NCBI RefSeq assembly: GCF_014197795.1
Contig: NZ_JACIGI010000013.1
Coordinates: 1-64,000, forward strand
Reading direction: 5' to 3'
DNA: 64,000 nt
DNA from: Roseospira goensis
GTDB lineage: Bacteria; Pseudomonadota; Alphaproteobacteria; Rhodospirillales; Rhodospirillaceae
Part shown: positions 92 to 61,850 of the stretch, in pieces
How the letters are laid out: each line of letters begins with the position of its first letter
Position numbering within the stretch: the stretch's first letter is position 1
Made by a program: the position numbers and the translations under genes
The notes under the pieces: model-generated
What the model was told of the DNA's origin: nothing
Database searches by the model: none
What the model saw: only the letters and a program-made list of their open reading frames with translations

Positions 92-171
92 AACCAATCA
101 TATAGGTCGCGCGGATTCACGCGATCAATCCGAACCACGCCGTGTTTCCGATTGATCGCGATCCGCGCTAA
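92..171. repeat. Palindromic intergenic element, family 1, copy A
   Basis: The inner stem is GCGATCAATCCGAA (121-134) against TTCCGATTGATCGC (146-159), with one mismatch. It is enclosed by GCGGATTCACGC on the left and GCGATCCGC on the right. The right end supplies the stop codon (168-170, minus strand) of the neighbouring small membrane protein gene. Related copies lie at 13571-13630, 13641-13709, 49164-49287, 52055-52191 and 61785-61850. Confidence 0.8.
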
Positions 172-494
172 CCCCGCATGCGCTCGACCTGTTCCAGCAT
201 GGCCTGTTGGTCGATGAAGAAGCCCAGGAACAGGCTGATGGCCATCAGGATCGCGGCCTCGTCCCAGCGGGTCAGATGCGGCACCCGCACCGGCTCGCCC
301 AGGAATCCGGCCACCAGCGCCGAGACCAGCGCCCCGATCCAGAGCAGAGAGCTGAGCGATGCCACCATCAGATCCGGCGGCAAGGTGGAGGCGATCAGAA
401 GCGCGATGGAGCCGAACAGACCCAGGCGCAGGAGGCTGGTCTTGTTCATATCGGTGCGGTCGCTGTCGGGGTGTCCACTCGCGTTTCCAGCCAT
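168..494 (-). CDS. Small membrane protein, unknown function (108 aa)
   Basis: I do not recognise this protein. The chosen start (MAGNASGHPD...) follows a strong ribosome-binding site, GGAGGGAAGGGG, just upstream; a start ten codons earlier lacks one. Three hydrophobic stretches are visible: about residues 20-38 (LGLFGSIALLIASTLPP), 43-67 (SLLWIGALVSALVAGFLG) and 80-97 (AAILMAISLFLGFFI). The protein is therefore probably an inner-membrane protein with a short polar N-terminus and a charged tail (LEQVERMRG). The stop codon lies inside the end of palindromic element A. The gene runs in the same direction as mlaC, but the 235-base gap makes co-transcription uncertain. Confidence 0.6.
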   Translation of the reverse strand: MAGNASGHPDSDRTDMNKTSLLRLGLFGSIALLIASTLPPDLMVASLSSLLWIGALVSALVAGFLGEPVRVPHLTRWDEAAILMAISLFLGFFIDQQAMLEQVERMRG

Positions 495-729
495 GGCCCC
501 TTCCCTCCGGTGCGCGCCCGGCACGGACAGGCACGACGCCCCGGGTGTGGTGTCCGGGTGTGGCGTCCGGGTGTGGTGTCCGGCGGGCGCGGCCGGGCAT
601 GCCGCCCGCCGTCCTCCCTCAAGATGGGCCGGTCGACAGGGCGAATCAACCGAAGCCGTGCCGGGTCTCCGGTGGCCCGTTCGGGACGCCGGAGGGGACG
701 CCGGAGGGGGCGGTCGCGCGCGATCCGCG
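495..729. repeat. Non-coding gap with two short tandem repeats
   Basis: Around 543-585 a 12-base unit close to GTCCGGGTGTGG occurs three times in a row. At about 684-710 a 12-base unit (GACGCCGGAGGG) occurs twice. No open frame with a convincing start is seen. The mlaC stop at 730-732 is preceded by GATCCGCG, the same bases that end palindromic element A, so a remnant of that element may lie here. Confidence 0.6.
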
Positions 730-1380
730 CTACAGCTCGGTCTTCTCGCGCAGTTCGGCGACGCGCTGCTCCAGGGTCTCGTTGAGGCCGGTCAGGCTGC
801 CCTTTTCCTTCAGCACCGAGGCGTACTCCGAGCGCCAGGTCTGCGACATCCAGATGCCCTCGACCGAGATGTCGACGATGCGCAGGCCGCCCTCGCGTTT
901 GCGCACCCGCCACGTGACCAGGAACGGCTTGCCGTCCTGGTTGCCGATCCGGGTCTCGATGAAATAGCCCTTGTCGTCGTCCGGGACCACATTGGTGACC
1001 TGGAGCGCCTGGCCGCCGTACTCATCGAACCGGCTGCCCCAGTTGAAGACGTTGAAGTCCTTGAACAGGTCGAGGAACCGTTCGCGCTCCGCGTCCGAGG
1101 CGGAGCGCCAGGCGCGGCCGACCACGAAGCGGCCCACGGTCTCCAGGTCGAAGGCGTCTTCCAGCAGGGTCTCGAACTTCGAGATGCGGTCGTCGGTCGA
1201 GATGTCCGGCTGCAGAATCTCGTCGATCGCCCGGTCGGCGACCGCCTTGATGAAGGCGTCGGGTTCGGTGGGCAGGTCGGCGGCGCGGGCGCCGAGGGGC
1301 AGGGCCACGGCCAGCGCCACCACCAGCAGCAGGGGGCGCAGCCGGCCCAGGAGGCGAGACGGAAGTAGGGTCGGTGTCAT
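730..1380 (-). CDS. mlaC: MlaC/Ttg2D-type phospholipid-binding periplasmic protein
   Basis: Probable periplasmic carrier of the Mla system, which moves phospholipid between outer and inner membranes to keep the outer leaflet asymmetric. The 216-residue product has a signal peptide (LLLVVALAVALPLGARA, about residues 17-34) and then the usual MlaC layout. DAFIKAVADRAIDEIL is the N-terminal helix, DLETVGRFVVGRAWRSAS is the conserved ALGRYWR-like segment, and VTWRVRKREGGLRIVDIS plus GIWMSQTWRSEYASVL form the characteristic C-terminal core. Length matches the family. The ATG at 1380 was preferred over an upstream in-frame start because it sits directly before the signal peptide. No mlaD, mlaE or mlaF is present, so its partners must be elsewhere or beyond the window. 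Confidence 0.85.
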   Translation of the reverse strand: MTPTLLPSRLLGRLRPLLLVVALAVALPLGARAADLPTEPDAFIKAVADRAIDEILQPDISTDDRISKFETLLEDAFDLETVGRFVVGRAWRSASDAERERFLDLFKDFNVFNWGSRFDEYGGQALQVTNVVPDDDKGYFIETRIGNQDGKPFLVTWRVRKREGGLRIVDISVEGIWMSQTWRSEYASVLKEKGSLTGLNETLEQRVAELREKTEL

Positions 1381-2002
1381 GGCGATCTCATCCGTTGAGG
1401 GCCGTCTTCGGGGCCGTGGGCGGCGGGCGCCCGTCATGTGCTTCAGGTCGTGTGCATCAGGTCGTGTGCATCAGGGGGTGGGTCCAGGGTCTTGGGCATC
1501 GGCGGTCCGAGGCAAGGGTCTGGGTCCTGGGGCGAGTCCCCAGGGTCCGCCCACCGGACGCGACCGGCCCCAGCATGGCGCGATGATGCGGCTCCCCCGC
1601 GTGCAGACGGTGGCGATTCTGTGTCTTCGCTGCCGACCCACGGCCAGTCCAGGGCCGACCTGGGCCTTGGATTGGCCGTAGCACCTGGTCGTCGCCGCCA
1701 GATCGCCGCCGGAGCGCCGCCGCGCCGGCCGCGCCGGCCGCGCCGGCCGCGCCGGCCGCACCCGGACGCCATGGCTAGCACAGTGGGCGGGGCAAATCCA
1801 CGGGTGGTGCGGGGTCCCACAGGGCCATCGTGTGGCAACGCGCCGGGGCGAGGCGGCAGAGACCGACGCCCGGTCCCCCGAAGACGTCATGCGGGGCCAG
1901 GGCGGGGCGCCGCGACGCTCGGCTTGTCATGATATAAAGATATGTTTATATGTGGATGCAGACGGGCGCTTCCCGCCTGTCGGGCATGAACGGAACCGAC
2001 GC
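1381..2002. other. Intergenic region with tandem repeats and the met-locus operator
   Basis: This 622-base gap separates mlaC from the divergent methionine locus. A 14-base unit, CAGGTCGTGTGCAT, is repeated exactly twice at 1444-1471. A 9-base unit, GCGCCGGCC, is repeated four times at 1722-1757. The only AT-rich stretch, around 1928-1955, contains the palindrome described separately. Open frames across the gap lack ribosome-binding sites and protein-like composition. Confidence 0.6.
1932..1951. promoter_or_regulatory. Palindromic operator, probable ArsR-family binding site
   Basis: ATATAAA and TTTATAT form a perfect 7-base inverted repeat around a 6-base centre, in an otherwise extremely GC-rich gap and about 50 bases before the ArsR-methyltransferase start. 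ArsR-family repressors of methionine genes (for example SahR) bind short AT-rich palindromes at this kind of position. Autoregulation of the arsR-metF-metH locus is the inference; binding is not shown by the sequence. Confidence 0.65.
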
Positions 2003-7844: not shown

Positions 7845-10800
7845 GCGTCGATGAGGCCGGGGCAGGACGGCCCCGGGAAGGGCCTGCGCGGTGTGTCGCC
7901 CGAGGATCTGACCGACTGGCTTCAATGAGGCCGGGGCATTACTGCCCCGGGAAGGATGCGACAGGAGATCCGGAAGTCGCCGCGAGGAATGGCTTCAATG
8001 AGGCCGGGGCATTACTGCCCCGGGAAGGCGCCGTAAAGTCACCCGACAAAATCCGCATCACTCGCGGGCTTCAATGAGGCCGGGGCATTACTGCCCCGGG
8101 AAGGATAAGCGGTTCGCGACATGCCGCGACGTCTTTGATGGCTTCAATGAGGCCGGGGCATTACTGCCCCGGGAAGATGAGCGAGGCGGAGAGTACGATC
8201 CGAACGAAGGTACGGCTTCAATGAGGCCGGGGCATTACTGCCCCGGGAAGCCGCCGCCATGACCGAATACCTGGGCGAGGCGGTCACGCTTCAATGAGGC
8301 CGGGGCATTACTGCCCCGGGAAGGTCGCGGTCACCGATCCGGCCGGCAACCGCAAGCTGGAGCTTCAATGAGGCCGGGGCATTACTGCCCCGGGAAGCCG
8401 ACATCGCCACATTGCAGGCCCGCCTCGTCGAGGCGCTTCAATGAGGCCGGGGCATTACTGCCCCGGGAAGCAACCGCACCGTGGTGCAGGAAATCGTCGC
8501 CAAGGGTGCCGCTTCAATGAGGCCGGGGCATTACTGCCCCGGGAAGCGAGGGGTGTCGGCCACGCTGATCTCGGCGGGGGCCCAGCTTCAATGAGGCCGG
8601 GGCATTACTGCCCCGGGAAGCGAGGAGGCCGCATGGAAGCGCGCCAAGCGCGAAGCGCTTCAATGAGGCCGGGGCATTACTGCCCCGGGAAGCCGGCGCC
8701 GGAGACCCCGCCGGGCTACATGCAGGACAGGCTTCAATGAGGCCGGGGCATTACTGCCCCGGGAAGCACGCCCGGTCGGATCGTCTGTGCCGACATCCAA
8801 CGGCTTCAATGAGGCCGGGGCATTACTGCCCCGGGAAGCTGATCGACTACGCTCGCAAGAAGGTCCAGCCAGACGCTTCAATGAGGCCGGGGCATTACTG
8901 CCCCGGGAAGGGTGGCGGCATGATCCTCCTGGCCCTGGACATCGCCAGCTTCAATGAGGCCGGGGCATTACTGCCCCGGGAAGCGGGCCAACAGCGGGGG
9001 TGCCCTGACCCCTGGGACGAGCTTCAATGAGGCCGGGGCATTACTGCCCCGGGAAGGGTCTTGAGCACGCACAGCGGCACGGACAATCCGTAGCTTCAAT
9101 GAGGCCGGGGCATTACTGCCCCGGGAAGACCTTCAGCGTCGAGCCGACGGTGGAGCAGACGCTGGAGCTTCAATGAGGCCGGGGCATTACTGCCCCGGGA
9201 AGCGCGGATTGGGTTGTGGTGGTGTCAGGTCCGGCCGGCGCGCTTCAATGAGGCCGGGGCATTACTGCCCCGGGAAGCACCCTGATCGCCGTCGCCAACC
9301 TGCCGGAGACGTAGCTTCAATGAGGCCGGGGCATTACTGCCCCGGGAAGGATGTGCAGGTAATCGTACAGAAGATCAGAAGTAATGGCTTCAATGAGGCC
9401 GGGGCATTACTGCCCCGGGAAGCCACCTGCATGTCGCCCTTGATGTCCTCGCGGTCGCTGCTTCAATGAGGCCGGGGCATTACTGCCCCGGGAAATCGTG
9501 CGAACGAAAGGCTTGTCGACCCACTGGAGGGCTTCAATGAGGCCGGGGCATTACTGCCCCGGGAAGCCGGGTCGGCCGGCAGGATGATGGTGCCGCCGAG
9601 CGTGCTTCAATGAGGCCGGGGCATTACTGCCCCGGGAAGAGTTGTACCCCGGGGAGAAGATCGCGTTCCACGACGCGCTTCAATGAGGCCGGGGCATTAC
9701 TGCCCCGGGAAGGCCCGGGAGGCGGGCGCCGGGGGTGGGGTGGGATCGCGCTTCAATGAGGCCGGGGCATTACTGCCCCGGGAAGACCTGTTCGCGTGGC
9801 TTTCCCAGCATCGGTGGGTCTAGCTTCAATGAGGCCGGGGCATTACTGCCCCGGGAAGCAGCTCCAGGGACACGGCCGCCGGCACGGCCAGCCCGCTTCA
9901 ATGAGGCCGGGGCATTACTGCCCCGGGAAGGCGCTCCCCTCTCCTCGGGGTGGGGGCGCGCGCGAGAAGCTTCAATGAGGCCGGGGCATTACTGCCCCGG
10001 GAAGGGAGCGGGACGTCATCTCCGTCATGTCGAAGGGCAAGCGCTTCAATGAGGCCGGGGCATTACTGCCCCGGGAAGCGACGCGGTTCATGCTCGACCC
10101 CTCGACCGTGAGGGCGCTTCAATGAGGCCGGGGCATTACTGCCCCGGGAAGCCTGATCGGCCGCCGCGTTCAGCGCCTGGGCCATGCGCTTCAATGAGGC
10201 CGGGGCATTACTGCCCCGGGAAGCCGCCGGGGCCGGGGCGGGTGCGGGCGCCACGTCGTCGGCGCTTCAATGAGGCCGGGGCATTACTGCCCCGGGAAGG
10301 GCCGGGAGGCGGTCCCGATGGCTGAGGTGTCGTCGTCGCTTCAATGAGGCCGGGGCATTACTGCCCCGGGAAGCTGAACGACGAAGAAGCGCATCAGATT
10401 TTGCTGTTTCTGCTTCAATGAGGCCGGGGCATTACTGCCCCGGGAAGGAGGACGTGTTCCTGCGCTGCCTGGACGTGCTGACCCGCGCTTCAATGAGGCC
10501 GGGGCATTACTGCCCCGGGAAGCCGGCAGCCACGCGAATGTGGTAACGCTTGAATCCAGGCTTCAATGAGGCCGGGGCATTACTGCCCCGGGAAGAAGTA
10601 CGGCCGGCCGCGCCAGTCATGGGTCTCGGCCGGGCTTCAATGAGGCCGGGGCATTACTGCCCCGGGAAGCTGGCGCCAACAATGGAGCGCGCAGCGATGA
10701 ACCTGCTTCAATGAGGCCGGGGCATTACTGCCCCGGGAAGGTGCCCGAGTGCTGGAGCGAGCCGCCCGCGAAGGCGAAGCTTCAATGAGGCCGGGGCATT

Positions 10801-12800
10801 ACTGCCCCGGGAAGTCCCGCCGCCGGTGAAGGTGAACATGTACAGCCCGAAGCTTCAATGAGGCCGGGGCATTACTGCCCCGGGAAGCGCCGCGCCGTCC
10901 GCACAGGCGCTTGCCAGCGCCTGAGGCTTCAATGAGGCCGGGGCATTACTGCCCCGGGAAGCCGTCCAGGCGCAGGCGGCGATGATCCCCAGGGTCTGCG
11001 GCTTCAATGAGGCCGGGGCATTACTGCCCCGGGAAGGGCCTATCAGGACAAGATCCAGGCCGGGCACCTGGAACAGCTTCAATGAGGCCGGGGCATTACT
11101 GCCCCGGGAAGGCCGCCCCCGGCGCCCGGCGGGCGCCGGACTTGAAAGCTTCAATGAGGCCGGGGCATTACTGCCCCGGGAAGGCGCCGCCCGGATCATC
11201 CCCCTCGCCGGCTCTTGTCGTGGCTTCAATGAGGCCGGGGCATTACTGCCCCGGGAAGGCCGTTCAACGCCGCCCTGGCCGCGCTGTGCCAGACCGCGCT
11301 TCAATGAGGCCGGGGCATTACTGCCCCGGGAAGCGGGTGTTCCAGGACCCCGCCCCAGAGTGTCAGGGCGCGGCTTCAATGAGGCCGGGGCATTACTGCC
11401 CCGGGAAGCCCGGCGGCCCTGCGTGACACAGGCGCGGCGGCGGCGGGCTTCAATGAGGCCGGGGCATTACTGCCCCGGGAAGGCACGCGCGCTATGGTCT
11501 GGTCGATCATCATGGCGGAGGCTTCAATGAGGCCGGGGCATTACTGCCCCGGGAAGGCTCCTGCCCTGGTGTCAGGTGAATATCGACGATGTTGCTTCAA
11601 TGAGGCCGGGGCATTACTGCCCCGGGAAGGGGCGGAGAAGGAGGCGCCGCCCGATCCGGAGACGATGCTTCAATGAGGCCGGGGCATTACTGCCCCGGGA
11701 AGGCCCGCCCACGACCCCGACACCGGCGAGGTACTGGAGTCGCTTCAATGAGGCCGGGGCATTACTGCCCCGGGAAGAAACCCAGAAGCCAGAGGCCAGA
11801 GACCAGAAGGGTATTGCTTCAATGAGGCCGGGGCATTACTGCCCCGGGAAGTTCCGGGGCGACCGCTACCTGCGCGGCAAGTGGGCCTTGCTTCAATGAG
11901 GCCGGGGCATTACTGCCCCGGGAAGCCGCCGGACTGGGGCTGGCGGCGGCGCAGCCGGACGCTTCAATGAGGCCGGGGCATTACTGCCCCGGGAAGGTGT
12001 GGCTGGACGGCCGGGCGCGCCAGAGCCGAGAGGCTTCAATGAGGCCGGGGCATTACTGCCCCGGGAAGGCCGGCCGGCGGGGGTCTTTATGTGCGCGCAC
12101 GATACGCTTCAATGAGGCCGGGGCATTACTGCCCCGGGAAGTGCAGATCCAGGGCCTGCCCGAGGACGAGGCATGGCTCGCTTCAATGAGGCCGGGGCAT
12201 TACTGCCCCGGGAAGAGGCCGACGCGCCCATGACAAGCGCCCAAATTGCGCAAGCTTCAATGAGGCCGGGGCATTACTGCCCCGGGAAGACTCCGGGCAT
12301 GGCCATGCTTGGACGGAATCCGCGCAGCTTCAATGAGGCCGGGGCATTACTGCCCCGGGAAGTGCCCGTCATCATGGACGCGGCCCCGCCCAACATAGGC
12401 TTCAATGAGGCCGGGGCATTACTGCCCCGGGAAGCGCGCGCACGCGCTCCACCTCGTCGATGGACATCACCTGCTTCAATGAGGCCGGGGCATTACTGCC
12501 CCGGGAAGGAGTTCAGGTAACGCATTTTATGCCAATCACTTAGCTGGCTTCAATGAGGCCGGGGCATTACTGCCCCGGGAAGGTCTCAGGCCGCCTTCGC
12601 TAGCGAATTGGGTGTTCATGCTTCAATGAGGCCGGGGCATTACTGCCCCGGGAAGCATGGGAGTGAGATTAACGCAGTTTCTGCCAACTCATGCTTCAAT
12701 GAGGCCGGGGCATTACTGCCCCGGGAAGCGCATTCATAGACGGCCTCGTAATTCTGACCCGCAAGCTTCAATGAGGCCGGGGCATTACTGCCCCGGGAAG
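7845..12800 (-). CRISPR. Type I-G CRISPR array, 68 repeats and 67 spacers
   Basis: On the plus strand a 36-base repeat begins GCTTCAATGAGGCCGG and ends GCCCCGGGAAG. I counted 67 canonical copies from 7919 to 12800 at 71-76 base spacing (spacers 35-40), plus one degenerate copy at 7845-7880 with five substitutions. All canonical copies look identical except the one at 9460-9495, whose last base is A instead of G. The array is read on the minus strand. There the repeat ends in ATTGAAGC, the usual crRNA 5' handle, and forms an 8-bp stem CCGGGGCA/TGCCCCGG closed by a GUAA (GNRA) tetraloop. The decayed copy lies at the end far from cas2, as expected of the trailer, and the leader is next to cas2. 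Apparent short proteins across the array that repeat MRPGHYCPGK are translated repeats, not genes. Confidence 0.97.
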
Positions 12801-13037
12801 CGGCCGCGTCCAACCGCTTGACCCGCCTCGCAGTTTACCGCCTTTTTCGAGCGCTGCCCAGGGTCCTTCGTCGTGTTCCCCGTTCAGACCCTTCAGCGGG
12901 ACGCGGAGACGCCTGCTGCGACCATGCTAACCCTTTGATTCACAGTGTCAAACAGCTTTTTTCGAGCGCTCCCGGAGTCGGGGGCACCGCCGGAGCGCTC
13001 GCGCGTGCCCGGCGACCATCCCCGACGGGACCACAGG
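12801..13037 (-). promoter_or_regulatory. CRISPR leader
   Basis: This 237-base region lies between the youngest repeat and the end of cas2. It contains two copies of a motif, CTTTTTCGAGCGCT at 12842-12855 and CTTTTTTCGAGCGCT at 12956-12970, about 114 bases apart. They are the most T-rich segments of the region and could be integration or host-factor sites. A promoter reading into the array is described separately. No protein-coding frame is credible here. Confidence 0.8.
12924..12951 (-). promoter_or_regulatory. Probable pre-crRNA promoter
   Basis: On the minus strand a perfect -35 hexamer, TTGACA (12951-12946), is followed after 16 bases by TAGCAT (12929-12924), which matches the sigma-70 -10 consensus TATAAT at four of six positions. 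Initiation would fall near 12917, about 115 bases before the first repeat. It sits inside the leader and points into the array. No transcript data are available to me. Confidence 0.65.
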
Positions 13038-13452: not shown

Positions 13453-13570
13453 TCCGCCGCCATCCGTTCGCAGGCCAGCCGGCGCTCTGGCGCTACAGCC
13501 GATTGCAATAGACCGGACCCGCACCGCGAGTCCGGTTCGTCGCGGACATCGGCTGAGACTCGTACATTTG

Positions 13571-13709
13571 GCGCCGAGTCACGCGATCAACCCGAACCAC
13601 CTCGGGGTTCCGATCGAGCGCGATCCGCTCTGAAACCAATAGATCGCGTCGAGTCACGCTCGAAATCGGCCCCACCCCGGTGGTTCCGATTTCGAGCGAT
13701 CGGCGCTAA
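13571..13709. repeat. Palindromic elements, family 1, copies B and C, between cas4/1 and cas2
   Basis: Copy B (13571-13630) has CGAGTCACGCGATCAA on the left and GCGATCCGC on the right, with an imperfect inner stem. Copy C (13641-13709) has a perfect 13-bp stem: CGCTCGAAATCGG (13657-13669) against CCGATTTCGAGCG (13686-13698). The right end of C (GGCGCTAA) contains the cas4/1 stop codon. Copy C is preceded by AAACCAATAGATCGCG, similar to the AACCAATCATATAGG before copy A. Confidence 0.8.
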
Positions 13710-47551: not shown

Positions 47552-48642
47552 TCCGGCGCCTCGTCAGCGTGCCGCGCCACCGCCGCCTTGGCCGCGGCCA
47601 GGACCGCGGCCCCATCCAGGCCGCGCTCGGCGGCCTCCGCGAGCCAGCGGTCCTCGGCCACCTGGAAGGCCTCCAGGAATGGCGCCGACGCCGCCGGCGA
47701 CAGCCGGATGATCTCGTTGCCCCTCTGTCGCGCCATGTCCATCACCTGGGGTTCCACCGTGTCCCAGATCCGGCCGGCCTCGCGCGCGAAGTCGGGGCCG
47801 GTATGGGCATCCAGGATCGCCCGCAAATCGTCGGGCAGGCTCTCGTAGCGGTCCTTGTTCATGGCCAGCAGGAAGGTGGTGGTGCCGAAGCGCTGGCCGC
47901 CCGCCAACTCTGTGTGACAGCAGGCGATGTCGATCACCCGCAGCGGCCGCGCCACCTCGAACGGGATGAAGGCGCCGTCCAGTACGCCGCGGGACAGCGC
48001 CTGCGGCAACTCGGGCACCGGCATGCTGACCGGCTCGGCCCCCATCGCCTCGATCATCCAGGTCCCCGAGCGCGACGGGACCCGCAGCTTGAGACCCCGG
48101 ACGTCGTCGATGGTGCGCACCGGCACGGCGGTGGTGTGCAGCGCCTGACCGGAATGCACGTGCACCAGGAGCGGATGCACGTCGGCGAAGTCGGCCGCCA
48201 GCGCGCCGCTGTCCATCAGGTCCCGGATCGCCAGGTTGGTCACCGTCGCGCTGCCGCCGTGCACGCTGGGCAGGTTGAACACCGAGGCACGCGGGAACAC
48301 GCCCGGGGTATAGCCGAGCACGGTCCAGATGATGTCGGCCACGCCGTCGCGCGCCTGCTGGTACAGCTCCGGCGGTGCGCCGCCCATGGCCATGGACGGA
48401 AAGAACTCGAACGCGAGGCGCCCCTCGGAGGCCTCTTCGAGGCGCGCCGCCCAGGGCTCCAGGAACTCGGCCTGGGTCACCGCCTTGGCGCTGAGGAAGT
48501 GATGCACCGTCAGCGTTACCTCCTGGGCCGCCGCCGATCCGGCGCGGCCGAGAGGGGCGAGGGCGACGAGGCTCAGGGCCGCCACGGCGATGGCGGCCGT
48601 CCGGATCACGGCCGCGGCGGCGGCCTGCCTGGATGGGGTCAT
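47548..48642 (-). CDS. dctP: TRAP transporter solute-binding protein (DctP type)
   Basis: Periplasmic receptor of the TRAP transporter. The 364-residue product has a signal peptide (IAVAALSLVALAPLGRAGSA, cleaved around AAAQE), then VTLTVHHFLSAKAVTQAEF, GRLAFEFFPSMAMGG, ARDGVADIIWTVLGYTPGVF and the ligand-binding Arg in GLKLRVPSRSGTWM. Further blocks are LPQALSRGVLDGAFIPFEV and TTTFLLAMNKDRYESLPDD. The two-helix ligand region resembles family members that bind carboxylates, but the substrate is not predictable. The ATG at 48642 has GGAGG five bases upstream; in-frame sequence further upstream is not protein-like. Confidence 0.93.
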   Translation of the reverse strand: MTPSRQAAAAAVIRTAAIAVAALSLVALAPLGRAGSAAAQEVTLTVHHFLSAKAVTQAEFLEPWAARLEEASEGRLAFEFFPSMAMGGAPPELYQQARDGVADIIWTVLGYTPGVFPRASVFNLPSVHGGSATVTNLAIRDLMDSGALAADFADVHPLLVHVHSGQALHTTAVPVRTIDDVRGLKLRVPSRSGTWMIEAMGAEPVSMPVPELPQALSRGVLDGAFIPFEVARPLRVIDIACCHTELAGGQRFGTTTFLLAMNKDRYESLPDDLRAILDAHTGPDFAREAGRIWDTVEPQVMDMARQRGNEIIRLSPAASAPFLEAFQVAEDRWLAEAAERGLDGAAVLAAAKAAVARHADEAPE

Positions 48643-49337
48643 AGGTCCTCCGGTCGAGGCGAGGGGCGGAACGCGGTCCCTCCGAATCCGGGCGTGTTTC
48701 GGTTGGACCCCGTGATCGGGCCCGAGATCGAACAGGTCGGACGCGCCGGGGACTCGAGGGGGCACGGTCGCGCGCGGGGGCAACGCTCGCCGGCATCGTA
48801 CAGCAATGCCCCCGGCCTTCAACCGCCGGCGCATCCGGCGCAGGACCGTGGGCAAGGGGTCCAACCCGCGCCGCATGGCGCAGCGCGCGCCCCCAAAGGC
48901 ATAGTCCATTCATGATACATGGGCATGCAGGCAGACCCGAAAATCGTGCAGCGGGAAGGTCGACCGGCGAGATCGCCTCATGGTCGAAAGTCGACGTCAC
49001 AGGCCTTAACGGTTTGTCCACGCTTTCAGGATGTACTCCAAGGATAACGGACGAAGCCCGAAGGAATCCTCAAGCAGTATGCGGATATGGGAGAAAGGTG
49101 GAGCGATGTGGGGAAGACACATGGCGGGACTCGCGACCGCACGGGGGGGCTCGGGGAGATCGCGATCAATCCGAAAGACTTCGTGCTTCGGATTGATCCC
49201 GTGGCTCGGCCCTGAATCAAAGAGTTAGGGCGGAGTCTCGCAGGGCATTGGCGCCCGGACTCGGGTCCCATGACGTGCGATCCGCCCCAGGATGCGGGGC
49301 TTGAACGGCCTGCATCGCCTTCAGAAGAGAGGCAGTC
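48643..49337. other. Intergenic region before the first chemoreceptor gene, with family 1 palindromes (copies D1 and D2)
   Basis: D1 is a perfect 12-bp stem: GATCAATCCGAA (49164-49175) against TTCGGATTGATC (49187-49198). D2 runs from TTAGGGCGGAGTCTCGC (49225) to GCGATCCGCCCC and has a perfect outer 7-bp pair, GGGCGGA (49228-49234) with TCCGCCC (49281-49287), around a weak inner stem. The rest of this 695-base gap shows no credible gene; it must contain the promoter for the minus-strand TRAP operon and that for the chemoreceptor. Confidence 0.7.
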
Positions 49338-51344
49338 ATGCTTAAGTCGCTCAGGATAGGACCCAAGCTTTATGGTGGGTTTGGGCTCGTCCTTTTTCTC
49401 CTTGTTGTGCTCGGCGCGATCACGATCTATGAACTCAGCGCCATTTCGAACGTCTTCACCGACTATCGGACGCTGGCCCGCTCGACCAATGAGATCGGAC
49501 GCGTCCAGGCCAACCTCCTTGTCGGCCGCATGGGCGTGAAGGACTTCATCATTGACGGGGACGACGCCGCCGTCGATCAGGTCACCCAGCGGCTGGAGGC
49601 GACCCGGCGCTTCATCGACTCCACCGATGCGCTGACCTCCGACGCCGAGGCCCAGGCCCTGCTGGACGAGATCCGCGCCCAGGTCGACACCTACGCGACC
49701 ACGTTCGCCGCCGCGGTCGAGACACAGCGGCAGCGGGACGCCCAGGTTCGGGCGTTGCAGGCCGCCGGACCGGTGGTCGAGGAATCGCTGACCGAGATCA
49801 TGCGCACGGCCGACAGCGACGGCGACACGCGCGCGGCCTACAACGCCGGCCTGACCCTGCGCCACCTGCTGTTGGGGCGCCTCGCGGCCTACCGCTATCT
49901 GGTGCGCAGCCAGCCGGCGGACTACGAGGAAGTGATCCAGCGACTCGATCGGTTCGACTCCCGCCTGGAGCGGCTGGTGGCCGACCTTGATGATCCGCAG
50001 CAACTGGCTCTGGCGGAGACCGCGCGGGACCAGGCGCAAGCGTACCGCGAGGGCTTCGACGCCATGCACCAGCATATCGTTCGCTATAACGATCTGGTGC
50101 ACGACCAGCTGGACCACATCGGCCCGACGGTGGCGCAACACATCGAGGACTACAAGCTGGAGATCAAGGGCGAACAGGACATCCTGGGGCCGCGGGCCTC
50201 GGCCCTGATCCGCACGACCGTCATCATCACCGTGGTCATCGCCGTGGGCGCGCTCCTGCTGGGCGGGATCGCGGCCTGGATCATCGCCTCCGGCATCACG
50301 CGCCCGGTCCAGGCCATGACCGGCGTGATGACCCGCCTGATCGAGAAGGACTATGCCGCGGAGATCCCGGCCCTCGACCGCAAGGACGAGATCGGGGAGA
50401 TGGCCAAGGCCGTGCAGGTGTTCAAGGAGAGCATGCAGACGGCCGACGCCCTGACCGCCGAGCAGTTGGAGGAGGGCCACCGCAGCGAGCTGCGGGCGAA
50501 GCGGCTGGAGACCCTCAACGATCAGTTCGACCAGGGTGTCAGCGGCGTGCTGGAGCAACTCTCGTCGGCGTCCACCGAGTTGCAGTCGACCGCCGAAAGC
50601 ATGGCCTCCATCGCCGAGGAGACCAACACCCAGGCGACCACGGTCGCCGCCGCCTCCGAACAGGCCTCCAACAACGTGCAGACCGTCGCTTCGGCGGCGG
50701 AGGAGCTGTCGTCCTCGATCCGCGAGATCGGTCGCCAGGTGCAGCACGCCAGCACCGTCGCCGGTCAGGCGGCGGACGAGGCCGAGCGCACCAACGCCGT
50801 CGTCTCCGGGCTGGCGGACGCGGCCCACAAGATCGGCGAGGTGGTCGACCTCATCACCGACATCGCGGATCAGACCAACCTGCTGGCGCTCAATGCCACC
50901 ATCGAGGCGGCGCGCGCCGGCGACGCCGGCAAGGGCTTCGCGGTGGTCGCCAACGAGGTCAAGAGCCTCGCCACCCAGACCGCCAAGGCCACCGAGGATA
51001 TCGGCCGCCAGATCGGCTCCGTGCAGACCGAGACCAAAACGGCGGTGACGGCCATCGAGTCCATCTCCGAGATCATCCGGCGGGTCAACGAGTCGGCGTC
51101 GGCCATCGCCTCCGCGGTGGAAGAGCAGAACGCCGCCACCGAGGAGATCGCCCGCAACGTCCAGCAGGCCAGCCAGGGCACCACCGAGGTCTCGCAGACC
51201 ATCGCCGGCGTGACCGATACCGCCCACGAGACCGGCGCCGCCGCCGACAACGTGCTCCAGGCCACCAACCTGCTGAACGAGCAGTCCTCCAAGCTGAAGA
51301 ACCTGGTCGAGCACTTCCTGCACGAGGTGCGCAGCACGGCCTGA
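49338..51344 (+). CDS. Methyl-accepting chemotaxis protein 1, HBM-type sensor
   Basis: Transmembrane chemoreceptor that controls CheA. The 668-residue product has two membrane segments ([20 protein letters not shown], about 11-32, and [20 protein letters not shown], ~295) around a ~260-residue all-helical periplasmic domain. That domain starts [20 protein letters not shown] and fits the helical bimodular (HBM) ligand-binding family. HAMP follows ([20 protein letters not shown]), then the methyl-accepting domain with the tip [20 protein letters not shown] and [20 protein letters not shown]. No C-terminal CheR-binding pentapeptide is present. AGAGAGG precedes the ATG and an intrinsic terminator follows. 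Its sensor is the most diverged of the three HBM-type receptors here. Confidence 0.93.
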
Positions 51345-51384
51345 CCGCGCGCCCGCGGTTCGGGGCGATCACCCGGCCAGAGGT

Positions 51385-51415
51385 AGCCGGTCCCTTCTGG
51401 GGGCCGGCTTTTTTT
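51385..51415 (+). terminator. Intrinsic terminator after chemoreceptor gene 1
   Basis: AGCCGGTCCC (51385-51394) pairs with the GGGGGCCGGCT ending at 51409 in a 10-bp stem with one G-U pair and a short loop, and is followed by a run of seven T. This is the clearest Rho-independent terminator in the window, about 40 bases after the stop codon. Confidence 0.88.
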
Positions 51416-52434
51416 GGTTGTGCGTCAAGCCTGGCGCGGAGCGCCGTGCCGGGCGCGGCCCGGGCCGCCGTGGTGGCGGGTCCCGTCCTGCCTGATGACA
51501 CCGGCGAGCCTTGATCCTGATGAGTCAGGATCAAGACCGGCCAGTACGAGACGCATTTTGCGACCGGGCGCCGGGCGTCCCGCGTCACTCTGACCGAGAC
51601 CCGGGTGCGGGGGCGTGATGCGGGCCCCACGCCCCCGGTCGCCGCCCGACCTGTCGGATCCCGCCGGACAGACGGCCCAATGTCTTGCCTGGGCCGGCCA
51701 GTCTGCCCCGGCACGGCCCCGGCACGGCCCCGGCACGGCCCCGACACGGCATCGGGCCTTGATCCTGACGGGTCAGGCGCAAGGCCGGTTGGCCTGAGTC
51801 CGGGACGATCGTCCGGAACGATCGCCGACCCCGGCATGCCTATTGCTTTCCGGAGGCTCATCGAGACCGGGCTGCACAGTCTCTGGCGGCGGCCCACGGT
51901 CCGCGCGTGAGCAGAGGGCGTCAGATCGACCCGCGATCGGATATTGTCGCGAACGACGCTATCTATCCGGTTATATTTGGGAATATTGGCTTCCCCAAAA
52001 TGTACTGCCGCGCCACTCGTTAATTATTTTCTCATATATTTGTTTGGATCGTTCTAGGGCAGGTCGTGATCAATCTGACTCCCAGCGTGGTTCTGATTGA
52101 TCACGTGACTCTGCCCTAAACCAGATGGTTAGGGCGGAGTCACGCACGGCCTTGGATTCCAACAGTGGGTCCAATGCCGTGCGATCCGCCCTGGGGCCAC
52201 GCCGGCGGGCATTCGCGGGCGGGGCGGGGGTGCGATGCGCGCGCAGCGCCGTGCCCGCCACAGGGGGCCGCCGGCGATCCGGCGCGGCGGCCGCCTCATC
52301 CTGGCCGGCCTTGCTCCTGACCCGTCGGGATCAAGGCCCCACGCGGCTTCGCCGCGCCGGCGCGGTCGCGCCGGCCGGCCGACGGAGAGGTCCGCCCTTC
52401 CGTCGGCCGGTACATCTTGTCCGAAGGGGGACCC
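51416..52434. repeat. Repeat-rich intergenic region between chemoreceptor genes 1 and 2
   Basis: About 1 kb without a credible gene. It contains three family 2 palindromes (51510-51535, 51755-51786, 52307-52338) and two family 1 palindromes placed back to back (52055-52119 and 52129-52191). An 11-base tandem repeat close to CCCCGGCACGG occurs about four times near 51706-51750. An AT-rich block lies at about 51940-52050. Copy E1 of family 1 has the perfect stem GTGATCAATC/GATTGATCAC (52066-52075 and 52095-52104). Copy E2 has GCACGGC/GCCGTGC plus TTGGA/TCCAA inside GGGCGGA/TCCGCCC. Confidence 0.8.
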
Positions 52435-54594
52435 ATGTTGAGATCGCTGCGTATCGCGGTCGTCTTGCCGCTGCTCATCTGCCTTGTGGCGCTGATCGCC
52501 GTGCTCGTCACGGGCGGATTGGCCTACTGGCGCGCCGCCACCACCCTGACCGCCGAGGCCGAGGCCAAGCTCGTGGCCCTGCGCGAAAGCCGTGCCACGG
52601 CCCTGGAAAGCTACCTGGCAAGCATCGTTGGCGACCTGGCGGTGAGCGCCGGCAGTCACGCCACCCTGGAGGCCCTGCAGCGGTTCGACCGCGCCTACAC
52701 CGGCGTGCGCAGCGTGGCCCCGGGCGGGGACGCGACCGCGGCGCTCCAGCGGGCCTACATCGCCAACAACCCGCACCCCCAGGACGCGAAGCACAAACTC
52801 GACGCGGCGCCCGGGAACACGCCCTACGACCGCACCCACGCCACCTATCATCCCTGGTTCCGCGACCTGCAGGAGGAGCGGGGATACTACGACATCTTCC
52901 TTATCAACGCCGCCGGTATCGTGGTCTACACGGTCTTCAAGGAGCCGGACTTCGCCACCGATCTGCGCACCGGACGCTGGGCCGACAGCAGCCTGGCAGA
53001 CGTCTACAACCGCGTCGCCGCCGACCCGCAGGCCCGCCCCATCGCCTTCGCCGACTTCGCCCCCTACGCACCGTCCGACGGCGACCCGGCCAGCTTCATC
53101 GCCCACGCGGTTTTCGACGACACCGGGGCTTTCGCGGGTGTGCTGGCGTTCCAGATGCCAGTGGCCGAGGTCAACGCCATCATGCAGGTGAGCGCCGGCA
53201 TGGGCGAGACGGGGGAAACCTACCTGGTCGGGCCGGACCTGCTGATGCGCAGCGACTCGCGCTTCAGCGCCGAGAGCACGATCCTGTCGCGCGAGGTCGA
53301 CACGCCCGCGGCCCGGGCCGCGCTGGCCGGCGAGGCCGGGGTGACGGTCGGCCGCGACTATCGCGGGCAGCCCGTGGTCCAGGCCTACGGCCCGATCGCG
53401 TTCGAGGGCCTCAACTTCGCTATCCTGGCCGAGGTCGACCGCGCGGAGGTGATGGCCCCGGTCTACCAGATGCGCTGGTTCATGGTCGTCGCGGGCCTCG
53501 TCATTCTCGTCCTGGTCGCCGTCATGGGGCTCCTGTTCGCGCGATCCGTAACCCGCCCGATCGGCGCCATCACCGACACCATGGGCCACATGGCCGATGG
53601 CGACCTGACCGTCCAAATCCCGGCCACCGACCGCAAGGACGAGGTGGGCGAGATGGCGAAGGCCCTGAACGTCTTCAAGGAGGGCCTGGTGCGCGCGGAG
53701 CAGCTTGCCGCCGAGCAGGCCGAGGCAACGCGCCAGCGCGAGGCGCGCGCCCAGCGCATCGCGGACCTGAACACAGACTTCGATCATGCCGTCGGCGAGG
53801 TGCTGGGGGCGGTGGCGTCGGCGACGACAGAACTGCAGTCGACCGCCGAAAGCATGTCCTCGATCGCCGAGGAGACGAGCACCCAGGCCACCACGGTGGC
53901 GGCGGCCTCCGAACAGGCGTCGACCAACGTGCAGACCGTGGCCTCGGCGGCGGAAGAGTTGTCGTCCTCGATCCGCGAGATCGGCCGTCAGGTGCAGCAG
54001 TCCAGCGACATCGCCCGGCAGGCGGCGGACGAGGCCCAGCGCACCAACGCCGTCGTCTCCGGGCTGGCGGACGCCGCCCAGAAGATCGGCGACGTGGTCG
54101 ACCTGATCACCGACATCGCGGATCAGACCAACCTGCTGGCCCTCAACGCCACCATCGAGGCCGCGCGCGCCGGCGACGCCGGCAAGGGCTTCGCGGTCGT
54201 CGCCAACGAGGTCAAGAGCCTGGCGACCCAGACCGCCAAGGCTACCGAGGATATCGGCCGCCAGATCGGTTCGGTGCAGAGCGAGACCCGGACCGCCGTG
54301 ACGGCCATCGAGGCCATCTCCGGCATCATCCAGCGCATCAACGAGGCGACGTCGGCGATCGCGGCGGCGATGGAGGAACAGAACGCCGCCACCGAGGAGA
54401 TCGCCCGCAACGTCCAGCAGGCCAGCCAGGGCACCACGGAGGTGTCGCAGACCATCGTCGGGGTGACCGAGGCGGCGCGCGAATCGGGCGCGGCGGCCGA
54501 CAACGTGCTGGCCGCCACCAACGCCCTCAACCAGCAGTCCGCCGACCTCAAGATGCTGGTCGAACGCTTCCTGGCCGACGTGCGCGCGGCCTGA
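52435..54594 (+). CDS. Methyl-accepting chemotaxis protein 2, Cache-type sensor
   Basis: A 719-residue chemoreceptor. Membrane segments are at about 7-30 ([20 protein letters not shown]) and ~345 ([20 protein letters not shown]). The periplasmic domain of ~310 residues has Cache/PAS-like features: [56 protein letters not shown] and [20 protein letters not shown]. This fits a dCache-like sensor for a small molecule. HAMP ([20 protein letters not shown]) and a methyl-accepting domain with [20 protein letters not shown] follow. A GAAGGGGGA ribosome-binding site precedes the ATG. Its sensor is unrelated to those of receptors 1, 3 and 4, while the signalling domain is almost the same. Confidence 0.92.
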
Positions 54595-56997: not shown

Positions 56998-57555
56998 CCG
57001 AACCGGCGGCATCAAACCCGTGGGTCATCCGGACCGGCCTTGATCCTGACTCGTCAGGATCAAGGCCCGACGCGGCGTCGCCGCGCCGGCCCCTCAACTG
57101 GTCAAGCTGGCATCGCAGAGCCATGCCAGGGTGGCGCTGGCCGGCCTCCAAAAAGGTCACCCTTTCCGGCGGCCGCTCTAATCGGTCGCAGAGCCTGCCA
57201 CCGAGGCCGGACCGCGCCGTCCGGCCGCTCTGCCCTGAACCAACCTGCGGCGCAACAGTCAGGAAGAATTTTGGACATTAATGAACAGCCCGCAATGGTG
57301 ATACAACTATAGAGATTAGAATATTTAAAAAACTTCAGACTAATATGTTGAATTGATTATTTAACCTTCGGTTTACACTGGACTCGGCAAACTTGGGATT
57401 GCTTCTGTATTTGCCGAGCAATCTATGCTGCGGCGGCGGAACAGCAGGAGGGAGCGCGCGCCCCGGGGTGCGTGCCGGTGCCAAGAAACGCAGCGTCGAC
57501 CGGACCCGTCCCGACCCGACGCGGCCGGTCCCGGCGTAGACCGAAAGGCAAACCC
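56998..57555. other. Intergenic region with a perfect family 2 palindrome and a stem-loop leader
   Basis: GGCCTTGATCCTGA (57036-57049) and TCAGGATCAAGGCC (57054-57067) are a perfect 14-bp inverted repeat with a 4-base loop. A second GC stem, GCGGCG-TC-GCCGC, follows immediately (about 57072-57084). An AT-rich block lies at 57260-57365. In the leader, CTCGGCAAA (57383-57391) and TTTGCCGAG (57410-57418) form a perfect 9-bp stem with an 18-base loop. No gene is seen. Confidence 0.75.
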
Positions 57556-59562: not shown

Positions 59563-60065
59563 GGCGGGACGCCCGTCGCGGCGGTCCGCCGCGGTCCGGA
59601 CCGGGGGCGCCCGGCCGGCCGTGGCGGCCGCCGAAGACGGCATCGTCGGTGCCAATCCGGACCGGCTTGGAGAAAACGCCAGAAGAACAACGCCTTCTGG
59701 TTGAAGTTTGTATATTTACATCCTCTATAGTGCGATGGCGGCGATATCAAATGGGAGTCCAGATCCACGAATTTTGGATTCATAGAATTAACGCTTTTTT
59801 CATTGCCATTATGGGCATAATTTTCTTGCCTCTGTACTTCCCGTTTACTCGGTTTGTACTCAAGGAACAGTGAGGGGGGCTCCGTCACCACACCGGGACG
59901 GCGCCCGACACGTCGTGCCCGTCGCCGGCCCCACCGCCCCCGCGCGTAGGCCCACAACGACGCGCACACAACGACATGAGAGGGCAGCCACGGGGATCTC
60001 GGCGTGCGCCCCCAGCCCGATCCCGTCGCGCCTCTCCACGAACGAGAGAAGCACTGGAGACGGAC
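59563..60065. other. Intergenic region before chemoreceptor gene 5, AT-rich block
   Basis: This 503-base gap has an AT-rich block at about 59690-59870 in very GC-rich surroundings. A frame from 59649 to 59873 (74 codons) or from an ATG at 59751 (40 codons, hydrophobic: NAFFIAIMGIIFLPLYF) is open there. It has no ribosome-binding site and looks like a chance frame in AT-rich promoter DNA, though a small membrane peptide cannot be excluded. No hairpin of either palindrome family was found here. Confidence 0.4.
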
Positions 60066-61787
60066 ATGCTGTCGAACATCCGTATCGGCCTTCGTCTGCT
60101 GATTCTGACCGGAGTCACCATCCTCGCGCTTGCCGGGATCGGCGCCGTCGGCGTTTCGTCGACATCCACCGTCCAGTCGATGCTGGACCAGGTCCGGGAC
60201 ACCGCGCAGACGCCGGTTACACAGTTCGCCACCATCAATGAACTGCTGAGCGAAAGCTTCCAGCAACCCTATGCCGCTTCGCTCCACAACCCCGACCTGG
60301 ACGCCGCCGCCCACCACGACCACCCGGTCGGCATGCATACCGACGCCACCCGCGCCGCCGTCGCCCGCATCGCCGACGTCCTCGCGACCTATCGGGCCAG
60401 CGCGGCCGGGGACATGTTCCCGGCCCAGTTGGCCGCCTTCGAGGCGGCCTGGGCCGACTACCTTGATGACGGCCTGCGTGACGCCCTGGCCCTGGCCGAC
60501 CAGGACCGGCACATGGCTTTCGAACAGCTCGGCGTCCACCTGACCACGGTCACCCTCCCCAGGTTCCGCGCCGCCAAGGCGGCCGCGGCCGCGATGCTGG
60601 CCGCGCACAACGAGATCGCCGATCGGTTGGTGGCCGAGGCCCAGGCCCGCTATGCGCTGGCCCTGTGGACCATCGCCATTGGCGGCCTCTTCGCTGCGCT
60701 GATCGTGTTCGCCGGCAGCCTGCTGATCGGCCGCAGCATCACCCGCCCGGTCGCCGGCATGTGCGGCGCCATGGGCGATCTGGCCGAGGGCAACCTGGAG
60801 ACCGAGGTCCCCGCCCGCGAGCGCGGCGACGAACTGGGGCGGATGGCGGCGGCGGTGCAGGTGTTCAAGGAGAACGCCCAGCGCGTCAAGGAGATGGAGG
60901 CCGAGCAGGCCGCCCAGGCGGCGCGCGCCGCCGAGGAGAAGCGGCAGGCCATGCACACCCTGGCCGATGCCTTCGAGCGCGAGGTCGGCGGCGTGGTCGA
61001 GGCCGTGGCGGCGGCGGCCCGGCAGTTGCAGTCGACCGCCGAGAGCATGGCGTCCATCGCCGAGGAGACCAACAGCCAGGCCACCACGGTCGCCGCCGCC
61101 TCCGAACAGGCGTCGACCAACGTGCAGACCGTCGCCTCGGCGGCGGAGGAACTGGCCACCTCAATCCGCGAGGTCGGCCGCCAGGTGCAGCAGTCCAGCG
61201 ATACCGCCGGCCGGGCCGCCACCGAGGCCGAGCGCACCAACGCCGTCGTCTCGGGCCTTGCGGACGCCGCGCAGAAGATCGGCGACGTGGTCAACCTGAT
61301 CTCCGACATCGCCGACCAGACCAACCTGCTCGCGCTCAACGCCACCATCGAGGCGGCGCGCGCCGGCGACGCCGGCAAGGGCTTCGCGGTCGTGGCCAAC
61401 GAGGTTAAGAGCCTGGCCACCCAGACCGCCAAGGCCACCCAGGACATCGGCCAGCAGATCGGCTCCGTGCAGAGCGAGACCCGCACCGCCGTGGCGGCCA
61501 TCGAGTCGATCTCCGGCATCATCCATCAGATCAACGAGGTCACGTCCGCCATCGCCGCGGCGATGGAAGAACAGAACGCCGCCACCGAGGAGATCGCCCG
61601 CAACGTCCAACAGGCCAGCCAGGGCACCACGGAGGTCTCGCAGACCATCGTCGGGGTGACCGAGGCGGCGCGCGAGTCGGGCTCGGCGGCCGACCATGTG
61701 CTGCAGGCCACCCGCGATCTCACCGAGCAGTCGAGCACGTTGACCAGCATGGTCGACCGCTTCCTGGCCGACGTCCGCGCCGGCTAG
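60066..61787 (+). CDS. Methyl-accepting chemotaxis protein 5, four-helix-bundle sensor
   Basis: A 573-residue chemoreceptor with a shorter periplasmic domain (about 170 residues) between the membrane segments [20 protein letters not shown] and [20 protein letters not shown]. The helical composition ([79 protein letters not shown]) fits a 4HB_MCP sensor. A His-rich stretch, [12 protein letters not shown] (about residues 79-90), is unusual and might bind metal. HAMP and methyl-accepting domains are nearly identical to those of receptor 4. The chosen ATG at 60066 precedes a membrane segment; an upstream in-frame extension is Arg-rich and unlikely. The stop codon TAG at 61785 is also the first bases of a family 1 palindrome. 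Confidence 0.92.
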
Positions 61788-61850
61788 GGCAGAGTCAGGG
61801 CGGAGTCACGCCCGAAGTCGGGTCACGCCGCGACTCCGACTTCGGGCGAT
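61785..61850. repeat. Palindromic intergenic element, family 1, copy F
   Basis: It starts at the stop codon of chemoreceptor gene 5 and carries GGCAGAGTCAGGGCGGAG and then a perfect 13-bp stem: CGCCCGAAGTCGG (61809-61821) against CCGACTTCGGGCG (61836-61848). The stem sequence differs from every other copy while the flanking GGCGGAGTCACGC is kept. Confidence 0.82.

What the first reader, a model, noticed from the sequence alone, without database searches (positions are those of the whole stretch)
92..61850. Dispersed palindromes with conserved ends and covarying inner stems
At least seven intergenic elements share an outer frame close to (TTA)GGGCGGAGTCACGC ... GCGATCCGCCC. They lie at 92-171, 13571-13630, 13641-13709, 49225-49287, 52055-52119, 52129-52191 and 61785-61850, with a related stem at 49164-49198. 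Inside this frame the stem differs: GATCAATC-type in copies A, D1 and E1, CGCTCGAAATCGG in C, CGCCCGAAGTCGG in F, GCACGGC plus TTGGA in E2. In each of these the partner arm changes to match (perfect 13-bp stems in C and F, 10-bp in E1, 12-bp in D1). Covariation of this kind points to selection on structure, either DNA cruciform or RNA. Several copies begin or end exactly on a stop codon (TAG/TAA): the small membrane protein, cas4/1 and chemoreceptor gene 5. The short GATCCGCGCTA at the mlaC stop may be a remnant. The general form recalls RIME/REP-like palindromes of alphaproteobacteria, but I do not know this consensus.
Basis: partly seen in the sequence, partly recalled or inferred. Interest (0 to 1): 0.75.

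Follow-up and report, generated by a model that had tools for sequence, protein, structure and literature searches.

The report
Twin-hairpin jumping repeats on stop codons
Small repeated DNA elements made of two hairpins that carry cell-cycle methylation sites appear to have spread through this bacterium by inserting at TA, often exactly on a gene's stop codon, where the element itself supplies a working stop.

Summary
The hairpins belong to composites of about 138 bp: left hairpin, ~14-bp linker, inverted right hairpin. A covariance model gives 145 matches (both strands, capped search) in the 4.18-Mb host genome, a Roseospira relative, and 7-63 in five of six congeners. Inner stems covary strongly: 200 double-changed cells against 77 in shuffles.

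The conserved frame is a GANTC (CcrM methylation) site whose N varies. GANTC is about 11 times denser in the composites than in the window, and the host has CcrM. Many type C/D linkers resemble the IHF consensus.

Most outer ends are followed by TA (65 of 93). One nested insertion and one orthologous empty site fit TA insertion. In 35 of 93 hairpins the outer TA is exactly a gene's stop codon; for four genes, relatives without the element stop at the same position. RAYT transposases do not explain it: 13 of 16 carrier genomes showed none.

Best reading: a TA-inserting, two-hairpin MITE of the CIR kind (CcrM-associated intergenic repeats). No transposase was found. Selection on structure is likely, but arm-to-arm template correction is a live rival.

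The parts
92..170 (+). Type A element lacking its left hairpin: linker (CCAATCATATAGGTC from 94), hairpin 109-168, terminal TA 169-170; TAG stop of the 118-aa ORF 168-524(-) at 168-170
   Evidence: R1 E 8.8e-16; ORF; sequence
13494..13708 (+). Triple element: P hairpin 13494-13556, type A right hairpin 13571-13630, linker AAACCAATAGATC from 13633, type B right hairpin 13646-13706, terminal TA 13707-13708, part of the stop codon (13706-13708) of cas4/1 ORF 13706-15439(-)
   Evidence: nhmmer, R1, Pfam Cas1 and Cas4, sequence
49151..49289 (+). Type C composite: left hairpin 49153-49212, IHF-consensus match AATCAAAGAGTTA 49215-49227 in the linker, right hairpin 49228-49287
   Evidence: blastn, R1 both hairpins, linker
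52055..52193 (+). Type C composite: left hairpin 52057-52116, linker AACCAGATGGTTA 52119-52131 (2 mismatches to the IHF consensus), right hairpin 52132-52191
   Evidence: R1; linker; fold z -10.0
61785..61856 (+). Type C derivative: left end TAGGGCAGAGTCA joined to a right-hand hairpin with decayed outer frame; its TAG is the stop codon of chemoreceptor ORF 59976-61787(+)
   Evidence: R1 E 5.2e-6; Pfam MCPsignal; sequence
48664..48723 (-). Decayed hairpin of the family
   Evidence: R1 E 5.9e-4
720..732 (+). Possible remnant of a right end, GCGATCCGCGCTA, covering the TAG stop of ORF 730-1437(-) (recalled as mlaC-like)
   Evidence: only; not tested further

Best explanation
These are non-autonomous mobile elements (MITEs) of the CIR kind (CcrM-associated intergenic repeats). 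Each is about 138 bp: a left hairpin, a ~14-bp linker and an inverted right hairpin, between TA dinucleotides.

Supported here: many dispersed copies in this and related genomes; TA at both ends of all 9 type B composites and at most outer ends overall; one nested insertion that fits TA duplication; one orthologous site empty in six relatives; frequent placement on the TA of a stop codon, where TA plus the element's first G restores TAG; strong arm-to-arm covariation; conserved GANTC with free N in a host that has CcrM.

Inferred: a transposase acting in trans cuts at the outer arms (TA GNGCNGATCG) and inserts at TA. IHF bends the linker to bring the ends together. The hairpins matter as extruded DNA during transposition and/or as 3'-UTR RNA hairpins. 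CcrM methylation state (hemimethylated after replication) gates one of these steps. In this GC-rich genome insertion into a stop-codon TA is harmless because the end supplies TAG, so those insertions survive.
For: Copies: 145 matches among 150 scored candidates in the own genome; 18, 0, 28, 63, 7 and 8 in six congeners (both strands counted). TA: 34 of 48 held-out and 31 of 45 first-set outer ends are followed by TA; type B has TA at both ends in 9 of 9. Nested: a type B element sits inside the P hairpin of a type A element; with it removed GCAATAATCGG and a whole A composite remain. Empty site: copy C7:57932 is absent in six relatives, which carry TAG or TAA at that position. Stop codons: the outer TA is the stop of a coding-like ORF in 18 of 48 held-out and 17 of 45 first-set hairpins, against 6 and 3 at 120 other offsets together. 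For four genes, 5, 5, 4 and 6 relatives have a stop codon at the same position. Covariation. Separate hairpins rather than a four-way fold: column 5 pairs in 19 of 22 against 2 of 22. GANTC: 45 of 52 hairpins with N G24 T17 C3 A1; 82 sites in 32 composites, 18.3 per kb (window 1.7, flanks 2.4); nhmmer sets 16 of 16, 35 of 37, 39 of 46, 28 of 43. CcrM: RAMA domain in 7 of 7 genomes, PDB 6pbd E 1.5e-156. Linkers: 27 distinct best 13-mers, 7 exact and 9 with one mismatch to the IHF consensus; shuffles 0.06% and 1.3%.
Against: No transposase identified; DDE_3 (IS630 type) has no match in the own genome, though a multicopy IS can be missing from an 81-contig assembly. Both copies of a TA duplication are seen only in the nested case; the right TA of the base-resolved empty site has decayed. 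Type C composites keep TA at only 5 of 10 left and 4 of 10 right ends, type A at 7 of 12 right ends. The linker match is weak in type B (2-3 mismatches) and in half of the type A rows (25 of 50 with three), and linkers are related by descent, so shuffles overstate independence. Four G035 copies lack the left hairpin and linker, so these are not indispensable. P hairpins keep GANTC in only 28 of 43. In C12:61773 the gene end is diverged and one relative stops a codon earlier. The review lists CIRs as lacking terminal inverted repeats, whereas outer arms here are similar. Sequence homology to CIR1-4 could not be tested.
Confidence: 0.72

Rival explanations
1. REP/BIME or REPIN elements mobilised by a RAYT tyrosine transposase; the composite is a head-to-head REP dimer.
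For: Head-to-head paired palindromes at 3' ends, TAG at the ends; GTAG REPs also often supply the TAG stop to flanking ORFs (PMC3733652, passage seen). The own genome has one RAYT.
Against: That RAYT is flanked by an unrelated repeat, GGTTGGGGTGAGC..GCGAACCCCAAC (read by eye). RAYT was found in 3 of 16 other genomes (G033, G036, G083), not in G032, G034, G035, G037, which have 8-63 model matches; G033 has a RAYT and no model match. With G000, 3 of 16 carriers have one. The base before TAG varies, so the tag is not GTAG. The nested insertion fits TA duplication.
Confidence: 0.07
2. Functional 3'-UTR elements (bidirectional terminators or mRNA protectors) kept by selection at gene ends; mobility is past or incidental.
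For: Exact abutment to stop codons in 35 of 93 outer ends; very stable fold of the one composite tested, z -10.0; covariation; a similar frame in other Alphaproteobacteria, with 4 of 13 loci on a TAG stop judged by codon-position bias.
Against: The site of C7:57932 is empty in six relatives; C3:62548 and C4:68597 also lack the element in two and one relatives with both flanks aligned. No T-tract terminator is called at the hairpins in the one stretch scanned, 48500-52500. Model matches run from 0 to at least 145 within one genus.
Confidence: 0.13
3. The covariation is not selection on structure: template switching during replication (quasipalindrome correction) copies one arm from the other and keeps stems matched whatever their sequence.
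For: Whole inner stems differ between species while staying matched. The process is recalled from general knowledge, not tested.
Against: It should also erase the asymmetric internal loop (5 nt against 2 nt), which is conserved: columns 9-13 hold 1.6-1.9 bits, although the retrieval pattern favoured this. It predicts nothing about GANTC.
Confidence: 0.2
4. More specific form of the best reading: MITEs of an IS630/Tc1-mariner or IS5/IS427-type TA-inserting element present in the genus.
For: TA boundaries; RUP (linked to IS630-Spn1) and Correia elements are precedents (PMC2229807, passages seen). TA target of IS427 types is recalled.
Against: No DDE_3 match in the own genome; congeners and IS5/IS427 families were not searched. 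A plain TIR-reading transposase does not need matched hairpin arms.
Confidence: 0.25

Closest known systems
CIR, CcrM-associated intergenic repeats (Caulobacter, Brucella; Chen and Shapiro 2003 as reviewed in PMC2229807; section 7 and passages with Table 1 seen)
   Same: Two long inverted-repeat arms joined by a linker, conserved GANTC, TA at the termini, intergenic, alphaproteobacterial
   Different: About 138 bp against ~110 bp; GANTC sits in the basal internal loop of the inner arms as well as in terminal loops of Q and P; IHF-like linker in types C/D; similar outer arms, where the review's table lists no TIR; insertion site and stop-codon use documented, where the table gives target duplication as unknown. 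Sequence relation to CIR1-4 untested
RIB/RIP (BIME with an IHF site) of E. coli (Boccard and Prentki 1993; title seen in a reference list; content recalled)
   Same: Two inverted palindromes around an IHF-type site at 3' ends of transcription units
   Different: No sequence relation seen; no RAYT link; GANTC; TA insertion
Correia/NEMIS and RUP MITEs (PMC2229807, passages; PMC10969869, passages)
   Same: TA at the termini, short, base-paired transcripts; RUP inserts at TA; the 155-bp Correia has an IHF site
   Different: According to the review those fold end to end; here each end has its own hairpin
GTAG and CGTC REPs (PMC3733652, abstract, section 6 and passages)
   Same: Head-to-head dimers near 3' ends; GTAG REPs often provide the TAG stop
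   Different: No GTAG or CGTC tag; 22 modelled pairs against stems of 5-13 and 8-9 bp; no RAYT association found

Membership tests
CIR | Two inverted-repeat arms joined by a linker | tested here: met
   column 5 pairs within hairpins 19 of 22, across hairpins 2 of 22 (11 arm sets)
CIR | Conserved GANTC site(s) | tested here: met
   the retrieval pattern favoured GANTC with free N, the nhmmer sets started from seeds with a fixed N
CIR | TA at the termini | tested here: met
   65 of 93 outer ends; type B both ends 9 of 9; type C 5 and 4 of 10
CIR | GANTC exposed in a terminal loop of one arm | tested here: met
   Consensus positions 24-28 of P and 23-27 of Q, where these hairpins have their loops by eye; in the other hairpins it is basal
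CIR | No terminal inverted repeats (table of the review) | tested here: inconclusive
   Outer arms are similar but imperfect; the review counts only contiguous pairs
CIR | Sequence homology to CIR1-4 | not testable with these tools
   Paper not held
RAYT-mobilised REP/REPIN | RAYT gene present and flanked by the repeat | tested here: not met
GTAG REP | Unpaired GTAG at one end | tested here: not met
   Base before TAG varies
CGTC REP | CGTC tag, 8-9 bp stem, CCA tail | tested here: not met
   Sequences compared by eye with the description
TA-target MITE | TA target duplication shown at empty sites | tested here: inconclusive
   One nested insertion fits fully; one orthologous site fits on the left, right TA decayed; other junctions too diverged
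IS630-derived MITE | IS630 (DDE_3) element in the genome | tested here: not met
   No DDE_3 match in G000; congeners not searched; draft assembly
RIB/RIP-like | IHF binds the linker | not testable with these tools
   Only sequence resemblance
RIME | Shared sequence with rhizobial RIME | not tested
   No RIME sequence at hand; literature searches only

The most novel reading that the evidence does not exclude
A cell-cycle-gated transposon class: CcrM methylation of the basal GANTC in each hairpin, plus IHF bending of the linker, licenses transposition in the hemimethylated window after replication; the asymmetric basal loop marks inner arms so that only outer arms are cut; and a G-starting end turns stop codons into a safe harbour for insertion. 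CIRs across Alphaproteobacteria would belong to it.
Probability: 0.2. Interest if true: 0.8.

Novelty: new variant of a known kind. Interest (0 to 1): 0.56.

Why it matters
How CIR-type repeats move, and why they carry CcrM sites, is given as open in the review read here. This family offers a concrete insertion site (TA), a nested insertion, an orthologous empty site, several species with different inner stems, and a simple reason why stop codons collect them. It makes tests possible in purple bacteria: methylome, IHF binding, 3' RNA ends, strain polymorphism. It also warns that annotated stop codons can be donated by repeats.

Tried and rejected
RAYT mobilisation: rejected as above. IS630 partner: none in G000. 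Rfam at gathering thresholds: 67 matches in the window, all to CRISPR repeat family RF01330, none at the elements. Viral contigs: 0; plasmids: 0. Family-wide exact pattern: 4 of 74 genomes, G000 among them; of the three congener hits L069 is a clear copy, L070 looks like chance and L071 has the frame with a poorly paired inner part, so exact frames are a poor probe beyond this species. A four-way fold of the composite is the DNA minimum-energy fold of the one composite folded, but its pairs do not covary, so I rejected it. Convergent genes: 16 convergent, 6 divergent, 28 tandem, 9 unknown of 59 elements, against 6, 7 and 23 of 36 neighbour pairs in the window; the gene caller is crude, so I claim nothing. 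C1:70871, with coding-like ORFs stopping at both ends, could not be checked in a relative. RIME was looked for in print only.

Limits of the counts. Hairpins of A1 and A2 came from a GANTC-containing pattern with up to 2 mismatches per frame, filtered at 55% or more inner pairing, with more loci fetched, 127 of 145 distinct matches passed. Only those with 35-nt inner parts entered A2 (52); 23 of these form A1. A2 is mostly right-hand hairpins but holds some left-hand ones read on the other strand (eight rows by their first bases, one or two of them unsure). The I5 and DL sets likewise mix left-hand hairpins with right-hand ones read on the other strand, as their consensus shows, so they overlap A2. 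One search scored 150 candidates of 4704 in G000 and its list is truncated; the 48 held-out places are those that I read as new in that list, the 45 others those already fetched. Coding was judged by codon-position GC bias, not by a gene finder. One search counts some composites on both strands; collapses them. Choosing the best 13-mer inflates column scores.
Full report
What is there. The reported hairpins exist and are halves of composites. In the own genome a blastn query with 52055-52191 gives 54 matches, 11 of which (itself included) span at least 105 of its 137 bases; the frame pattern gives 34 matches, none in the reversed control. Flanks show four composite types (my labels): A (P hairpin + GATCAATC hairpin), B (Q hairpin + TCGAAATCGG hairpin), C (two GGGC-type hairpins) and D (TAGAGCCGATTGTTCG.. 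+ GAGCAGATTCACGC..), each with its hairpins inverted to each other around a linker of about 14 bases. Mosaics occur, including one hairpin with arms from two types (L022).

Host. Congener G037 has a 20408-base contig C44, and contigs of G035 have lengths, that equal those of Roseospira visakhapatnamensis JA131 and of an uncultured Rhodospira MAG in the named collection. A named-genome scan for the type C frame gave 24 loci: 10 Rhodospira/Roseospira, the others from Paracraurococcus, Roseicella, Siccirubricoccus, Caldovatus, Plastoroseomonas, a Rubritepida MAG and unnamed MAGs, mostly with shorter inner parts.

Number. The covariance model R1 (52 hairpins) matches 145 of 150 scored candidates in G000 and gives 18, 0, 28, 63, 7, 8 matches in G032-G037.

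Structure. On 23 type C right hairpins 91.1% of 506 cells pair, 9 pairs change on both sides, with 54 such cells against 20.2 in shuffles; the further-pair-types measure is not above shuffles (79 of 500). On 52 hairpins of all types 88.3% of 1144 cells pair, 15 pairs change on both sides, 200 cells against 77, score 0.416 against 0.135. Rows are related by descent, and retrieval and filtering favoured hairpins; the slid controls (0.126 at most) and the stem replacements between species carry the weight. The energy-minimum DNA fold of one whole composite is a four-way junction, but over 11 distinct arm sets from 16 composites the variable column 5 pairs within hairpins in 19 of 22 and across in 2 of 22. 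So each hairpin is its own unit.

GANTC. In the 52 hairpins the columns of the basal loop region (6-13) hold 1.5-2.0 bits except the N of GANTC, with 0.65; 45 of 52 keep GANTC with N = G24 T17 C3 A1. In four nhmmer sets started from seeds with a fixed N, GANTC is kept in Q 16 of 16, DL 35 of 37, I5 39 of 46 and P 28 of 43, and N is the least conserved of the five in each. The DL and I5 sets overlap the 52. Thirty-two composites hold 82 GANTC sites (1-4 each), 18.3 per kb, against 1.7 per kb in the window and 2.4 in flanks. The host CcrM is the ORF L191:715-1914, best PDB match 6pbd CcrMI, E 1.5e-156; the RAMA domain rings in 7 of 7 genomes of the genus and, of 14 control genomes, only in Caulobacter.

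Linker. WATCAANNNNTTR is the E. coli IHF consensus as I recall it. Of 27 distinct best 13-mers from linkers found through their flanks alone, 7 match exactly, 9 with one, 8 with two and 3 with three mismatches; the N columns hold 0.13-0.67 bits, the specified ones 0.57-1.77. Shuffled type C/D linkers give 0.06% exact and 1.3% with one mismatch. Type B linkers are two to three mismatches off; of 50 type A rows 8 have one, 7 two, 25 three and 10 more mismatches.

Insertion. In C8:63248 a type B element lies inside the P hairpin of a type A element; with B removed, GCAATAATCGG and an intact A composite are left, which fits a TA duplication. Joined flanks of 32 copies were searched in six congeners. 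C7:57932 has a contiguous empty site in all six, with TAG or TAA at the element's position; the left junction is exact, the right TA has decayed. C3:62548 and C4:68597 also lack the element in two and one relatives, with both flanks aligned but diverged junctions; the C4:176816 alignment only just crosses the junction.

Stop codons. The outer-end TA coincides with the stop of a coding-like ORF in 18 of 48 held-out and 17 of 45 first-set hairpins, against 6 and 3 summed over 120 other offsets. In four genes 5, 5, 4 and 6 congeners carry a stop codon (TGA, TAG or TAA) exactly there, with no element frame in the next nine bases. A fifth, C12:61773, has a diverged end (one relative stops at the same position, one a codon earlier); for the other eight gene ends tried no relative aligned to the end. 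So the elements landed on existing stops rather than cutting these genes short. In one search left ends lie on a stop in four copies, all with TAG ends (C1:70871, C3:51499, C3:194923, C7:57932); none of the type A left ends, which mostly read TAC, does. In one, C4:55735, a coding-like ORF runs through TAC and stops 9 bases inside the element. In 13 loci of other Alphaproteobacteria, 4 (L110, L121, L124, L125) end on a TAG stop with codon-position bias.

Mobiliser. The single own RAYT is flanked by another repeat. PF01797 was found in 3 of 16 other genomes and not in G032, G034, G035 or G037, all carriers. DDE_3 is not found in G000. In G035 four loci (L107, L114, L117, L119) keep the left end TAGAGCAGATCG joined to the right hairpin without left hairpin and linker, which suggests that the outer arms suffice for mobility.

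Reading. I take the family as TA-inserting MITEs of the CIR kind. CIR features come from a review (PMC2229807, section 7 and passages); the original paper was not held, so sequence membership is open. What the methylation sites and the linker do is inferred. Searches of the paper library for CIR, Bru-RS, RIME, RAYT/REPIN, MITE and Roseospira repeats listed no paper that I recognised as describing this family; of what they listed I saw listings, abstracts' beginnings and the outlines, sections and passages.

Noticed in passing
G000 flanks of C3:51499 and C4:176816, and many places in G037 and G036: A second TA-flanked palindrome, TAGTGCACTTTCGATCCAGACAAAAGATGC..GCATTCTTTTGTCTGGATCGAAAGTGCACTA, in many copies in congeners; its TA adjoins a type B element in C3:51499.
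   Followed up: no
L010 (G000 C2:74578): The right end of an element is repeated head to tail as GCGATCCGCGCTCCGGCCCTACATTGAGC.
   Followed up: no
composites: The base x in GNGCxGA differs between the two hairpins of an element in all 11 distinct arm sets (some are one type read on both strands), and in types A and B by their consensus; this keeps the two hairpins from pairing with each other.
   Followed up: partly
L068:1354-1923(-) (G000 C6:15266-15604): RAYT gene (NF047646, E 5.2e-57) flanked by GGTTGGGGTGAGCG..GCGAACCCCAAC palindromes, a separate REP system.
   Followed up: partly
window 7919-12801: CRISPR array, 67 matches to RF01330 on the minus strand, near the cas4/1 fusion whose stop codon carries an element.
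   Followed up: no
L099 (G034 C208): A type C right-hand stem is interrupted by another repeat with ends GAGCCCGTCCGGAAAG / CTTTCCGGACAGACACTGAGAG.
   Followed up: no
window 57036-57067 and 51500-51545: Two palindromes sharing TTGATCCTGA, unrelated to the family by eye.
   Followed up: no
L103 3706-3767 (Proteobacteria MAG ZJ7.bin6): A lone frame match with a wholly different inner stem shortly before an ATG that I read as rplM (recalled, not tested).
   Followed up: no
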